Under the pieces are notes generated by a model. The model did no database searches. It worked only from the letters and a program-made list of their open reading frames with translations, and had not been told where the DNA came from. From positions 1,488,001 to 1,552,000 of the forward strand of contig NZ_CP014854.1 in NCBI RefSeq assembly GCF_002214365.1: a DNA stretch of 64,000 bases. Direction: 5' to 3'. The position numbers and the translations under genes are program-made. Origin of the DNA: Thermococcus celer Vu 13 = JCM 8558. Lineage in GTDB: Archaea; Methanobacteriota_B; Thermococci; Thermococcales; Thermococcaceae. Positions 41,174-59,247 of the stretch are shown here, piece by piece (the first letter of the stretch is position 1; every line of letters starts with the position of its first letter).

Positions 41174-41809
41174 TCACTCCCCGTCCGGATAGCACAGATA
41201 ACGGTAGGGACAGAACCGACAGGCGTAGTCGTTCCACCCCTTCGGGGGTCTTCCCTTCTCGTAAGCGCGCTTGACGGAGTAGAACTGCTTCAGCGTCTCC
41301 CGAAAGAGCTTATCATCGTAGGGGATCTCAAAGGCCCGGAAGTTAGGCCCCTCCAAGATGGGAAAGCGCGAGAAGTCTATCTTCTCTATCACCCTCATGG
41401 GCTCGTCGTGGAGCTTGATGTAGTAGAGGTAGCCGTACTCGGCCTCGGCCCAACGGAGGTATACGTTGAGCTGGGCCATGTGGTAGTCGTAGGGGCTCTT
41501 CGGGAGGCTCGTCTTGCCCTTTATCTCGATGGGGAAGTTCCTTATGGCATCGACCCTGCCGTGTATCTCAAAGCCGAGTCTCCTGGAGCGGAGGACCATG
41601 TGCTTCTCGAGCTCGAACCCGAACCTCTTCCTCAGGATCTCACCGAGGACGTTGTGGGTGTTCACCCCCTGGTTCAGCCTCACCTTAACGAACTCGGGCC
41701 ACTTCGGGGGATAACCCTTCAGGCGGAAGTATATTCTCCTCGGACATGTTAAAGCCTCGCTGGCGTAGAACTCTATGAGTCCGTCGTTCTCACCCTTATT
41801 TCCGGTCAT
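41174..41809 (-). CDS. Solitary Cas4-like exonuclease (Dna2/Cas4 family)
   Basis: This 211-residue nuclease has the Cas4 cluster cysteines: one in ALTCPRRIYF near residue 22 and three in CRFCPYRYLC at the C-terminus, plus the PD-(D/E)xK core HGRVDAIRNFPIEIKGK (about 84-100). Solo Cas4 homologues occur in archaea and their viruses and may act in DNA repair or adaptation interference. No CRISPR array or cas gene is in the window. GGAGGGATCGAGG precedes ATG 41809. No TATA box is apparent between it and the upstream C/D box sRNA, so it may share that transcript. Confidence 0.88.
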   Translation of the reverse strand: MTGNKGENDGLIEFYASEALTCPRRIYFRLKGYPPKWPEFVKVRLNQGVNTHNVLGEILRKRFGFELEKHMVLRSRRLGFEIHGRVDAIRNFPIEIKGKTSLPKSPYDYHMAQLNVYLRWAEAEYGYLYYIKLHDEPMRVIEKIDFSRFPILEGPNFRAFEIPYDDKLFRETLKQFYSVKRAYEKGRPPKGWNDYACRFCPYRYLCYPDGE

Positions 41810-41831
41810 CCTCGATCCCTCCGGGGACGGG

Positions 41832-41848
41832 GCGGGTCATCGGCCCGC
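41832..41848 (-). other. Hairpin between sRNA and Cas4-like gene
   Basis: GCGGG-N7-CCCGC can fold between the sRNA D box and the Cas4-like start, nested with GGGGCGG/CCGCCCC. It may end or process the sRNA, or structure the leader of the nuclease gene. The function is inferred only from position. Confidence 0.4.
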
Positions 41849-41863
41849 GAACCTCACCGCCCC

Positions 41864-41920
41864 TGCGTCAGCTAATACCGACGTCATCACCCATCAGACT
41901 GGGCAAGGGTCGTCATCCGC
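41864..41920 (-). ncRNA. C/D box guide sRNA
   Basis: On the minus strand the order is C box ATGACGA (41916-41910, one change from RTGATGA), a 12-base guide, D' CTGA (41897-41894), a 3-base spacer, C' GTGATGA (41890-41884), a 12-base guide, and D CTGA (41871-41868). GCG and CGC outside the boxes form the terminal stem. Twelve-base guides between boxes are exactly the archaeal K-turn geometry. TTTAAATG at about 41950-41944 is a TATA box 25 bases before the 5' end. The D guide would match CUAAUACCGACG and the D' guide ACUGGGCAAGGG, with 2'-O-methylation at the fifth base from each D box. Targets were not identified. Confidence 0.82.
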
Positions 41921-41981
41921 CTGAGAGTTAAGGCTAACCCAACATTTAAAGCTTTGGGAAAATTCAGGAAGGGGAGCAAAA

Positions 41982-47505: not shown

Positions 47506-47958
47506 ACACCTCCTATTTTGGCCTAATCTCGTTGACCGGGATGGCTTTTTAAATCTTTCGAACCTCGGCCCCCTCGGACGGGAAACCCGCCTTTTCTCGG
47601 GGAGGCCTCATGAGTTCCGTCCATAGGTTGAGGACGGGGTTTAAAAAGTTAACTAATCGGTTTTGAGGAAAATCCCCAACTCTCAACGGAGATTCTCAAA
47701 AATCCCGCAGGTCCCAGGCGGGCAGGCCCTCTTCCCTCAGCTCGGATTTGCCGTCAACGTGGCGGGCGAGGATCTGTATAAATCCGAGGCCCCCCGATGT
47801 TATTCCACAGAAGTTTTCGGTTTACCCTCGATTGATAAACTGCCCGTGAGCATCACACTTTAGAGTAAGTTTCGATGGCACGACAAGAACACCTGGCCAA
47901 TTTTCAAGTTCAGAAAAGCAGGAAACGTAAAGAAGAGAGGGGATTTGGGAAGACGCCC
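47506..47958. other. Long gap between EF-2 and EF-1alpha
   Basis: This 450-base gap is wide for this gene-dense window. The right end (47548-47557) holds the EF-1alpha TATA box. On the minus strand, 47821 to 47696 is an open frame of 41 codons with host-like codon use (FCGITSGGLGFIQILARHVD, then KSELREEGLPAWDLRDF and a stop) but no start codon, and a stop two codons before it. It looks like the 3' scrap of a lost gene. No RNA gene is recognised. Confidence 0.5.
47696..47821 (-). pseudogene. Possible 3' fragment of a lost gene
   Basis: The 41-codon frame has G/C-rich third positions and a protein-like sequence, but lacks any ATG, GTG or TTG start and is closed upstream by TAA. The family is not recognised. 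Chance cannot be excluded at this length. Confidence 0.3.
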
Positions 47959-57136: not shown

Positions 57137-59247
57137 TCCGACCCCACCAGTCTGCGGAGGGCATCCATGAACTCGTCGATGTCCATCTGGATTATCCTGC
57201 CCCTCTCGTCTATGAACTCGAATCCGGGATAGAGGGACCTTAGGTGTTCCCAGTTTCCGTAGAAGTACTCCTGGAAGAGGGGTAACACCTTGTGATAGAA
57301 CACCATGTACAGCGCCCTCCTCGGGTCATCGGCGGAGGCTACATCGAGGAAGTACCCGTGTCCCACGGTGTAGTCCTTACCCTTTTCCTGCTCGATGATG
57401 GAGTTCAGCCTCATGAGAAGATGCTCGAGGTCCACCCCGTCCACGCTCACGTCCCTCAACCTCCCCGGGTCGGGGGTCAGTTCCACGAACGCGAACCTCC
57501 TCCTGAGTGCTATGTCGAGCATCGCTATGCTTCTGTCCGCCGAGTTCATTGTCGCAACTATGTATAGGTTGGGAGGCAGTGCGAAGAGCTCCCCGGAGTA
57601 CGGCAGGGTTACTATAACCTCGTTTGGAGCGTCCAGCCTTTTATCCGGGTCGAGAAGGGTTATCAGCTCTCCAAATATTCTGCTCACGTTGCCCCTGTTT
57701 ATCTCGTCGATCACCAAGTAGAAATCCCTTCTGGGCTTTATGCCTGTTCTCTTCCCGCTCTTTCGTTCCTTCAGGAACCTCTGAACCGTTGCCTTCATAT
57801 CACTGTACCCAACCTTGCCCCCACCCTTCCTGAGTTCATCAGGCAGGGAATCGTAGATCGCCCTCACCGTTAGTCGCTTGAACACACCGTCAGATACACG
57901 GTACACAACGTTCCCTTCCTTTTCAAAGGGTCTGAAGCCCTCCACGAAGTCCTCGTAGCTGTAGGACTGGTGGAACGTGACAAACTCCCCGTTTCTGGCT
58001 GTTTTAAGTGCCATGTATGTTTTGCCCGTGCCGGGCGGCCCGTAAATGATAACCTGTTTGAAATTCCTCAGCAGGGGCTCCAGAAACGCTCCTTCCGCTT
58101 TTTCACCACCTTCGCCTCCCTCCAGTTCGCCCCCCTGCCCTCCTGTTTTGGCTTCCTCGAACGTGTACAGGTAATCAACGTCCCCGCGAAGGAAGTAGTA
58201 AAAACCCCCGCCCGAGCTTTTGCCTCCGCTTCTGCCGAAGTAGAGGACCCTTCCATCCAGGGAGATCCCGGCGAACTTCGGGTCAAGGACCCCCGGAACG
58301 TACCTCCCAAGAACCGCACCCCCCTCGAAATCGCCCGGCTTTATCTTTTTAGACGACTTGACAACCTCAAAGGGCACAAAACCAGCCCTCACGTTTTCAC
58401 GGTAAACGCCCGTTATCAAAAAGAGCCCCCGGGACGTGAAGGACAGGAACACCAGCTCCCCGGGGAGCGATACCGGGTTTTCTCCCGTGGGGGTCATGAC
58501 GTAAATCTCCTTTCCTCCCTTGACCCCGAGGGCGGCTATGAACGAGTCGCCTTCCAGCCAGATGTCCCCCACGGGTCTCCCGCCACCTGAAACAACGTTG
58601 GATTTTGATAGTACTTCAATGCTGTCCCAGAACTCCCTGGCGGAGTAGTAGGGGAACATCGGGAAGGGGATCCTGCCCAGTTTCAGCCTGGGTCTTTGAT
58701 TTTCCCTGAAGGTGTAGAGCATGTAGATGGAGTCCCCCGTGTCCCTTACCGAGTGGATGTAGGCAAAGCCCCTGGGCGGCGTCGGTATCTTAACGACCTC
58801 AACGTCCGCGGGGGCGATGTAATCGACCTTGTAATCACAGAACACCAGGAGTCTGTCCATTGAAGTTAGAGTCACGTAGAGCGGTAGCTTGGTAAAAGCC
58901 ACCGAGAGGGCCTCGGATTCCGGGTCCTCGGACTGGATCGGGTAGAGTTTGACCTCCCCGGTTCCACACTTTGTAAAAACCGCGAGCTTTTCACTCCCGG
59001 GCAGGATCACGACCTCGTCCGCGCAGGACACCGCGATCCCTTCACCCCAGCCTTTGACGACTTCCCCCGCCGTTTCAAAAACGTGTATGAACCTTGAGTC
59101 GTCGTCCAGCCGAACCATGACCGCCAGGTACCTGCCGCTGGGAAAGAGCCTAAGCTCTTCGATCACGAAACCAAAGTCCCCGTACTCCGTGTCCAGAAAT
59201 CTTTTTATCAGATACATCGCGTTCTTCATTGGCATAGGATGGCTCAT
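57133..59247 (-). CDS. mcrB: McrB-like AAA+ GTPase with N-terminal putative beta-propeller
   Basis: In this 704-residue protein the C-terminal part is a McrB AAA+ motor: Walker A GPPGTGKT (about 403-410), FHQSYSYEDFVEGFRP, Walker B YLVIDEINRG and the McrB signature MNSADRS (about 567-573). The first 370 residues contain no known modified-DNA reader. They show about seven strand-rich repeats (for example SGRYLAVMVR, SEKLAVFTKCG, MDRLLVFCDYK, DSIYMLYTF, DSFIAALGVKG, RGLFLITGVY, DGRVLYFGRS), as in a WD40-like propeller. A Gly/Glu linker joins the halves. ATG 59247 behind GGTGATTGTA is preferred to 59301, and TTTAATAAA at about 59275 gives a separate promoter. Confidence 0.85.
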   Translation of the reverse strand: MSHPMPMKNAMYLIKRFLDTEYGDFGFVIEELRLFPSGRYLAVMVRLDDDSRFIHVFETAGEVVKGWGEGIAVSCADEVVILPGSEKLAVFTKCGTGEVKLYPIQSEDPESEALSVAFTKLPLYVTLTSMDRLLVFCDYKVDYIAPADVEVVKIPTPPRGFAYIHSVRDTGDSIYMLYTFRENQRPRLKLGRIPFPMFPYYSAREFWDSIEVLSKSNVVSGGGRPVGDIWLEGDSFIAALGVKGGKEIYVMTPTGENPVSLPGELVFLSFTSRGLFLITGVYRENVRAGFVPFEVVKSSKKIKPGDFEGGAVLGRYVPGVLDPKFAGISLDGRVLYFGRSGGKSSGGGFYYFLRGDVDYLYTFEEAKTGGQGGELEGGEGGEKAEGAFLEPLLRNFKQVIIYGPPGTGKTYMALKTARNGEFVTFHQSYSYEDFVEGFRPFEKEGNVVYRVSDGVFKRLTVRAIYDSLPDELRKGGGKVGYSDMKATVQRFLKERKSGKRTGIKPRRDFYLVIDEINRGNVSRIFGELITLLDPDKRLDAPNEVIVTLPYSGELFALPPNLYIVATMNSADRSIAMLDIALRRRFAFVELTPDPGRLRDVSVDGVDLEHLLMRLNSIIEQEKGKDYTVGHGYFLDVASADDPRRALYMVFYHKVLPLFQEYFYGNWEHLRSLYPGFEFIDERGRIIQMDIDEFMDALRRLVGSE

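What the first reader, a model, noticed from the sequence alone, without database searches (positions are those of the whole stretch)
41864..41920. Unlisted C/D box sRNA with perfect 12-base guide geometry
C, D', C' and D boxes, two 12-base guides, a terminal GCG/CGC stem and a TATA box at the right distance all appear on the minus strand. Guides predict methylation in CUAAUACCGACG and ACUGGGCAAGGG. I could not place either target in rRNA or tRNA from memory.
Basis: partly seen in the sequence, partly recalled or inferred. Interest (0 to 1): 0.62.

Follow-up and report, generated by a model that had tools for sequence, protein, structure and literature searches.

The report
Guide RNA for ribosome decoding site
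This is a real, ordinary archaeal guide RNA, found in nearly all Thermococcus and related genomes examined, whose two guides both match one spot of the small ribosomal RNA (the decoding-centre helix), where it most likely directs two methyl groups; a second conserved RNA hairpin, possibly protein-binding, sits beside it in front of a Cas4-like gene.

Summary
At 41865-41920 on the minus strand lies a 56-nt double-guide C/D box sRNA: boxes C, D', C' and D, two 12-nt guides, a GCG/CGC end stem and a TATA-like box. Rfam RF00095 (snoPyro_CD) matches at 46.5 bits (cut-off 45); none of 40 shuffled windows gives the architecture. 86 of 94 Thermococcaceae genomes hold the exact guide-box pattern; G008 has a variant and G010 a cut copy. 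Random guide pairs do this in 1 of 10,000 trials, shuffled guides in 0 of 10,000, though each match alone is unremarkable. Most likely it guides fibrillarin to methylate both riboses: a new member of a known kind. Two additions: a Cas4-family gene lies just downstream in 15 of 17 loci examined, and a covarying hairpin with k-turn geometry follows the sRNA in 55 of 57 same-genus orthologs. No expression or methylation data; a 3.2 A P. abyssi 30S model lists no 2'-O-methyl in helix 18.

The parts
41865..41920 (-). C/D box sRNA, 56 nt, double guide
   Evidence: Rfam RF00095 46.5 bits, cut-off 45; only architecture hit in the window, 0 in 40 shuffles; exact guide-box pattern in 86 of 94 genomes
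41945..41950 (-). TATA-like TTTAAA, about 30 nt upstream of the sRNA 5' end
   Evidence: sequence; a TATA-like box, loosely defined, starts 28-34 nt upstream of GGATGA in 85 of 87 orthologs (no shuffled control for this count)
41918..41920 (-). 5' arm of the terminal stem, GCG
   Evidence: 3-bp Watson-Crick stem at this place in 81 of 87 orthologs
41910..41916 (-). C box ATGACGA (one mismatch from RTGATGA)
   Evidence: last three bases CGA 60, TGG 19, AGA 6, TGA 1, TGT 1 of 87
41898..41909 (-). D' guide CCCTTGCCCAGT; pairs with 16S 443-453, predicted site G447 (E. coli G505)
   Evidence: 10 Watson-Crick + 1 G-U, twelfth base unpaired; target present in all 30 of the 16S loci read, out of 62 genomes with a 16S match
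41894..41897 (-). D' box CTGA
41884..41890 (-). C' box GTGATGA
41872..41883 (-). D guide CGTCGGTATTAG; pairs with 16S 473-483, predicted site U476 (E. coli U534)
   Evidence: 10 Watson-Crick + 1 G-U, base next to the D box unpaired; the G-U would become G-C with the guide of G045
41868..41871 (-). D box CTGA
   Evidence: CTGA in 85 of 87 orthologs, CGGA in 2
41865..41867 (-). 3' arm of the terminal stem, CGC
41829..41863 (-). Conserved hairpin with k-turn geometry between sRNA and the Cas4-family gene (GGGGCGG-N-GA-GG...CC-NAU-GA-N-CCGCCCC)
   Evidence: inner GA/GG/CC/NAU/GA part in 55 of 57 same-genus orthologs; in 31 distinct sequences 98.2% of cells paired and 3 pairs changed on both sides, slid registers far lower; placed by model R1
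41174..41809 (-). Downstream Cas4-family nuclease gene, 55 nt after the sRNA on the same strand
   Evidence: TIGR00372 95.3 bits, cut-off 65; Pfam PDDEXK_1 26.2 bits, cut-off 22; a homologue directly downstream in 15 of 17 loci examined

Best explanation
A standard archaeal double-guide C/D box sRNA. Transcription probably starts at its 5' end from the TATA-like box. L7Ae, Nop5 and fibrillarin assemble on the C/D and C'/D' motifs. The D' guide pairs with 16S 443-453 and the D guide with 16S 473-483, and fibrillarin 2'-O-methylates the nucleotide opposite the fifth base upstream of each box: G447 (E. coli G505) and U476 (E. coli U534). Both sites lie in helix 18 (the 530-loop, decoding-centre helix), so one particle can hold both sides of that helix while 16S folds. 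Shown here: architecture, conservation, complementarity, closeness of the targets. Inferred: transcription, RNP assembly, methylation, folding aid.
For: Rfam snoPyro_CD 46.5 bits. One hit in the window, 0 in 40 shuffles. Exact pattern in 86 of 94 genomes of the order, reversed control 0. In 87 tabulated orthologs the guide cores hold (CCTTGCCCAG 87, GTCGGTATTA 86; the tabulating pattern itself requires most of these letters) while the D'-C' linker has at least 25 variants. Both best matches over 16S and 23S are in 16S and 29 nt apart. Two guides both at 10.5 or more within 100 nt of one rRNA: 1 of 10,000 window pairs, 0 of 10,000 shuffled pairs. Guide variants move towards the target: G045 has GCCGGTATT in place of GTCGGTATT (G-C for G-U), and 6 orthologs have GCCTTGCCCAGC, complementary to the 16S site at 12 of 12 positions. 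44 tRNA loci give no comparable match. In a study of seven other archaea helices 3, 18 and 27 have the highest density of predicted 16S sites, and helix 18 has 23 predictions at 13 positions in five of the seven (PMC4644070, parts read).
Against: Each guide alone is not significant: 44 and 16 of 500 shuffles, and 44 and 45 of 1000 random window 12-mers, reach its score. 16S is invariant at the targets in the 30 loci read, so no target-side covariation can be seen; G045's own 16S was not found. A P. abyssi 30S cryo-EM model at 3.2 A lists 44 modifications, none a 2'-O-methyl in helix 18 (PMC7005279, part of section read), though only three 2'-O-methyls are listed at all. In the genome taken as T. 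kodakarensis the ortholog (about 58,291-58,357) is not in the published table of circular RNAs (PMC9014305); the supplementary list of its 61 C/D sRNAs could not be read. Two group g2 genomes have CGGA in place of the D box. Six of 94 genomes show no ortholog, one of them (G049) 96% complete. No RNA data for this genome.
Confidence: 0.86

Rival explanations
1. The element is mainly a cis-acting k-turn leader of the Cas4-family gene that binds L7Ae and controls that gene; the guide-like parts are incidental.
For: It ends 55 nt upstream of the gene on the same strand, with a TATA-like box before it and only a GC-rich stretch between; same order in 15 of 17 loci examined. A second k-turn-like hairpin follows it. 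Jaeger et al. counted 11 potential snoRNAs within 5'-UTRs and raised the cis-element reading for some (PMC4247193, section read). L7Ae regulates mRNAs through leader k-turns (PMC5539422, abstract and one section read).
Against: Both guides match one rRNA helix and hold while linkers vary. G001 and G002 keep the sRNA with no homologue of the gene in the roughly 1.2-1.5 kb fetched on either side. In G045 it sits a few nt after a tRNA-Thr gene (sequence).
Confidence: 0.06
2. Both at once (not exclusive of the best explanation): a dual-use leader in which one transcript gives the guide sRNA and the Cas4 mRNA, so that L7Ae or sRNP assembly and processing set Cas4 output.
For: Promoter-like box, sRNA, hairpin and gene in a row; the covarying k-turn-like hairpin was found once per genome, beside this sRNA, in 12 of 13 same-genus genomes searched; its AUG is out of frame with the gene in 11 of 32 genomes, so it is not kept as a start codon everywhere.
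Against: In 21 of 32 genomes that AUG is in frame and open, so a translational role there is not excluded. The gene's Shine-Dalgarno sequence lies after the hairpin, not inside it, unlike the l7ae leader, whose SD is in the C-helix and whose k-turn is unstructured without L7Ae (PMC6298567, passages); this stem is predicted stable, -16.7 kcal/mol, but no more than its shuffles (z -0.69, 43 of 200 as good). The hairpin was seen in one genus only. In one search only up to 150 first-look candidates per genome were scored, so further copies are not excluded.
Confidence: 0.15
3. The sRNA is real but the named targets are wrong: it methylates an mRNA or another RNA, or is an orphan.
For: Each guide match alone is reached by 3-9% of shuffles; mRNAs were not searched; no helix 18 2'-O-methyl was modelled in P. 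abyssi.
Against: The joint match within 100 nt has chance about 1 in 10,000 or less; guide variants improve the 16S pairing.
Confidence: 0.08
4. Chance resemblance; no RNA gene here.
For: None found beyond the short length of the motifs and the narrow margin over the Rfam cut-off.
Confidence: 0.01

Closest known systems
Rfam RF00095 snoPyro_CD (Pyrococcus C/D box sRNAs)
   Same: Box order, length, terminal stem; 46.5 bits over the cut-off of 45 across the whole model
   Different: A generic family; the D guide differs from the model consensus, and no individual sR family that matched reached its cut-off
Crenarchaeal helix-18 double guides Tte sR114, Pca sR28, Sac sR115 (and Iho sR21) of Dennis et al. 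2015 (PMC4644070)
   Same: One sRNA whose two guides target two close sites in 16S helix 18, E. coli A535 and G515
   Different: Here the sites are E. coli U534 and G505, and the guide order is reversed: here the D guide takes the 3' site, there the D' guide does. In Iho sR21 the second site is doubtful. Common descent or convergence not tested. The same paper lists an Iho sR206 guide to G482, which by its numbering offset would lie at about E. coli 505-506 (my inference)
T. kodakarensis C/D sRNAs (54 verified in PMC4247193; 61 putative in PMC9014305)
   Same: Ortholog in the genome taken as T. kodakarensis (G023) about 58,291-58,357, minus; may be one of those listed
   Different: Supplementary lists could not be read; not in the table of circular RNAs
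l7ae-leader k-turn (PMC5539422, PMC6298567), for the neighbouring hairpin only
   Same: k-turn geometry ahead of an mRNA's coding part
   Different: Different gene, GC-rich stem, SD outside the hairpin; L7Ae binding untested

Membership tests
Archaeal C/D box sRNA | C (RUGAUGA) and D (CUGA) boxes near the ends, internal C' and D' boxes | tested here: met
   Present; C box one mismatch
Archaeal C/D box sRNA | Two guides of about 12 nt between boxes | tested here: met
   12 and 12 nt, linker 3 nt
Archaeal C/D box sRNA | Short terminal stem closing the k-turn | tested here: met
   GCG/CGC; perfect Watson-Crick at this place in 81 of 87 orthologs
Archaeal C/D box sRNA | Guide complementarity to rRNA or tRNA including the fifth base upstream of D/D' | tested here: met
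   16S G447 and U476; joint chance 1 and 0 of 10,000; each guide alone not significant
Archaeal C/D box sRNA | Match to the family covariance model | tested here: met
   RF00095, 46.5 against 45 bits
Archaeal C/D box sRNA | Expressed small RNA bound by L7Ae, Nop5, fibrillarin | not testable with these tools
   No RNA data
Archaeal C/D box sRNA | 2'-O-methyl at the predicted nucleotides | tested here: inconclusive
   Not listed in a P. abyssi 30S model at 3.2 A (PMC7005279); few 2'-O-methyls modelled at all
k-turn (hairpin 41829-41863) | Tandem G.A pairs, 3-nt bulge, flanking helices | tested here: met
   By sequence only: GA opposite GA and bulge NAU in 55 of 57 same-genus orthologs; outer helix covaries; the two inner pairs never vary and so say nothing
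k-turn (hairpin 41829-41863) | Binds L7Ae or folds to a kink | not testable with these tools
   None

The most novel reading that the evidence does not exclude
The sRNA, the k-turn-like hairpin behind it and the Cas4-family gene form one transcript in which L7Ae, bound first to the guide RNA and then to the hairpin, ties output of an apparently stand-alone Cas4 nuclease to the supply of ribosome-modifying RNPs.
Probability: 0.12. Interest if true: 0.65.

Novelty: new member of a known kind. Interest (0 to 1): 0.3.

Why it matters
It names two testable ribose-methylation sites in the decoding-centre helix of Thermococcus 16S rRNA, next to sites that crenarchaeal double guides are predicted to target, so it bears on whether paired guiding of helix 18 arose more than once. 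The conserved k-turn-like hairpin between the guide RNA and a Cas4-family gene is a compact case, in a genus with genetic tools, for asking whether L7Ae links guide-RNA biology to an mRNA.

Tried and rejected
First target search and its E. coli mapping and controls were run on the wrong strand of the rRNAs, because genome-search loci are not turned to the match. They suggested two 23S sites; these are void. The nonsense E. coli alignment showed the mistake and the search was redone on sense rRNA. The 23S stretches fetched on that false lead (and part of 27) support nothing here, except that the position of one stretch helps to identify G023.

tRNA targets: 44 tRNA loci scanned, best 7.5 and 6.5 of 12 (14 of them with about 50-nt flanks). 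mRNA targets not searched. Wider spread: a slightly looser guide-box pattern, exact matches only, is absent from the 21 genomes of the phylum outside Thermococcaceae. Of the secondary BLAST hits I read a few: L135, L136, L201, L204 and L206 are a different C/D sRNA with other guides, L200 (G085) is another C/D sRNA again, and L205 (G049) matches only the promoter part. A literature search by guide sequence found only two papers, both on horse cells by title. Listings for archaeal 30S structures with modifications (20 of 23 shown) and for 530-loop guides (20 of 54 shown) had no title or abstract start that names this sRNA; most of those papers were not opened. Passages of the S. solfataricus structure paper gave no helix 18 site in the main text (PMC11698992). 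The 2026 P. abyssi structure paper keeps its modification table in a supplement (PMC13324472, passages). The T. kodakarensis cryo-EM paper is not held. RiboMeth-seq of P. furiosus is mentioned but its sites are not given (PMC7758197, passages). Folding of the hairpin alone is not better than shuffles; its support is comparative.

Rows dropped: of 90 extracted sRNA loci, 87 were tabulated; left out were G010 (cut at a contig end) and two loci of the other sRNA. The tabulation pattern itself requires GGATGA, the D' and C' boxes and most guide-core letters, so conservation of those parts is partly by selection; one search is the plain count. Synteny was examined in 17 loci of the 88 orthologs, the AUG frame in 32 loci long enough, the 16S targets in 30 loci.

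Full report
WHAT IS THERE. The minus strand from 41920 to 41865 reads as a complete double-guide C/D box sRNA of 56 nt: end stem GCG, C box ATGACGA, D' guide CCCTTGCCCAGT, D' box CTGA, linker TGG, C' box GTGATGA, D guide CGTCGGTATTAG, D box CTGA, end stem CGC. A TATA-like TTTAAA stands about 30 nt upstream. Rfam's snoPyro_CD family matches end to end at 46.5 bits against a cut-off of 45. A scan for this architecture finds this one hit in the window and none in 40 shuffled windows.

CONSERVATION. The guide-box pattern is found exactly in 86 of 94 genomes of the order, including 72 of 74 high-quality ones, and never as the reversed control. Of the other eight, G008 has a variant with one more base before the D' box and G010 a copy cut by a contig end; in G048, G049, G052, G064, G083 and G085 none was found, and only G049 of these is over 90% complete. 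A slightly looser pattern has no exact match in the 21 genomes of the phylum outside the family. In 87 tabulated orthologs the linker varies freely while guides hold, in part because the tabulating pattern asks for them. A 3-bp Watson-Crick end stem is kept in 81 of 87, and a loosely defined TATA-like box starts 28-34 nt upstream of GGATGA in 85 of 87, without a shuffled control. Two orthologs have CGGA for the D box.

TARGETS. Against the genome's own 16S and 23S rRNA, the best match of the D' guide is 16S 443-453 (10 Watson-Crick pairs and one G-U) and that of the D guide is 16S 473-483 (10 and one G-U). The fifth-base rule (recalled, standard for C/D guides) gives G447 and U476, aligned with E. 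coli G505 and U534. That E. coli 505 and 534 both belong to helix 18 is recalled; PMC4644070 places E. coli G515, G530 and A535 in that helix. Each match alone is unremarkable: 44 and 16 of 500 shuffles do as well. Together they are not: pairs of 12-mers from the window meet the same score within 100 nt of one rRNA in 1 of 10,000 trials, shuffled guides in 0 of 10,000. Guide variants point the same way: G045 has GCCGG for GTCGG, which would make the G-U a G-C pair (its own 16S was not found), and six orthologs carry GCCTTGCCCAGC, complementary to the 16S site at all 12 positions. All 30 16S loci read, of 62 genomes with a match, keep both targets. No tRNA locus matches comparably.

HOW IT MOST LIKELY WORKS. 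As other archaeal double guides: L7Ae, Nop5 and fibrillarin assemble on the two box pairs, both guides pair with helix 18, and two ribose 2'-hydroxyls are methylated. In seven archaea, none of them Thermococcus or Pyrococcus, helices 3, 18 and 27 have the densest predicted 16S methylation, with 23 predictions at 13 positions in helix 18 of five of them and none in the other two (PMC4644070, parts read). Crenarchaeal sRNAs couple E. coli A535 and G515 in the same way. The Thermococcus sites are 1 and 10 nt away with the guides in the other order. Whether this is common origin or convergence I did not test. None of the chemistry is shown here. A P. abyssi 30S structure at 3.2 A models 44 modifications; the 2'-O-methyls listed (Am373, Cm1376, ac4Cm250) are not in helix 18 (PMC7005279, part of section read). 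That counts against the prediction, but weakly, as few 2'-O-methyls of any kind were modelled.

SURROUNDINGS. The sRNA ends 55 nt before a Cas4-family gene on the same strand (TIGR00372 95.3 bits). Of 17 loci examined, 15 keep this order; G001 and G002 have no homologue of the gene in the stretch fetched. In G045 the sRNA follows a tRNA-Thr gene by a few bases. So the sRNA is separable from the gene and from its usual promoter. In the window's genus a hairpin follows the sRNA at once: a GC-rich stem, then GA opposite GA, a 3-nt NAU bulge and a GG/CC inner helix. The inner part occurs in 55 of 57 same-genus orthologs; G017 and G045 lack it. Over 31 distinct sequences 98.2% of pair cells are standard pairs, three pairs change on both sides, and shifted registers fall to 35-63%. 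A model of it finds one copy, beside this sRNA, in 12 of 13 same-genus genomes and none in 8 others; several of these sequences built the model, and at most 150 first-look candidates per genome were scored, so further copies are not excluded. The AUG in its bulge is out of frame with the Cas4 gene in 11 of 32 genomes, this one included, and in frame in 21; the gene's own SD and start lie beyond the hairpin. This is k-turn geometry by sequence; L7Ae binding is untested, and the fold energy is no better than shuffles.

IDENTITY NOTES. I take G023 to be T. kodakarensis because its 16S and 23S stretches (2023259 and 2025929) fall inside the rRNA coordinates printed in PMC9014305; contig length agrees from memory. 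The ortholog at about 58,291-58,357 is not in that paper's table of circular RNAs. T. kodakarensis has 61 putative C/D sRNAs (same paper, section read) and P. abyssi 59 C/D genes (PMC3124441, passages); the orthologs may be among them, but the lists could not be opened.

VERDICT. It is a new, well-supported member of a known kind. The neighbouring hairpin ahead of the Cas4-family gene is the less expected part and deserves the bench test.

Noticed in passing
   Followed up: partly
window 41174-41809, minus strand: Cas4-family nuclease gene (TIGR00372) directly downstream of the sRNA; the three neighbours tested (114-aa protein without a family, Taw2, metallo-beta-lactamase) are not cas genes.
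   Followed up: partly
L272 about 1206-1340 (G045): The sRNA lies a few bases downstream of a tRNA-Thr(TGT) gene, as if co-transcribed with it.
   Followed up: no
L271 and L029 (G001, G002), just after the sRNA: Where the Cas4-family gene is missing, an 11-bp GC-rich hairpin follows the sRNA (GGGGAGGTGC...GCACCTCCCC in G002, GGGGAGGCGC...GCGCCTCCCC in G001), perhaps a terminator or processing signal.
   Followed up: no
L135, L136, L201, L204, L206: Another C/D sRNA of relatives with a similar 5' half (D' guide CCCTTCCCCTCC in four of the five) and a different D guide, seen as secondary BLAST hits.
   Followed up: no
16S helix 18 of P. abyssi against this genome: The two acetylcytidines reported in P. 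abyssi h18 (479 and 511) appear, from their spacing of 32, to equal C455 and C487 here, just outside the two guide duplexes; the CCG inside the D-guide duplex is not listed as acetylated (numbering inferred).
   Followed up: no
window 47522-47618, minus strand: SscA RNA, Rfam RF00063, 85.5 bits.
   Followed up: no
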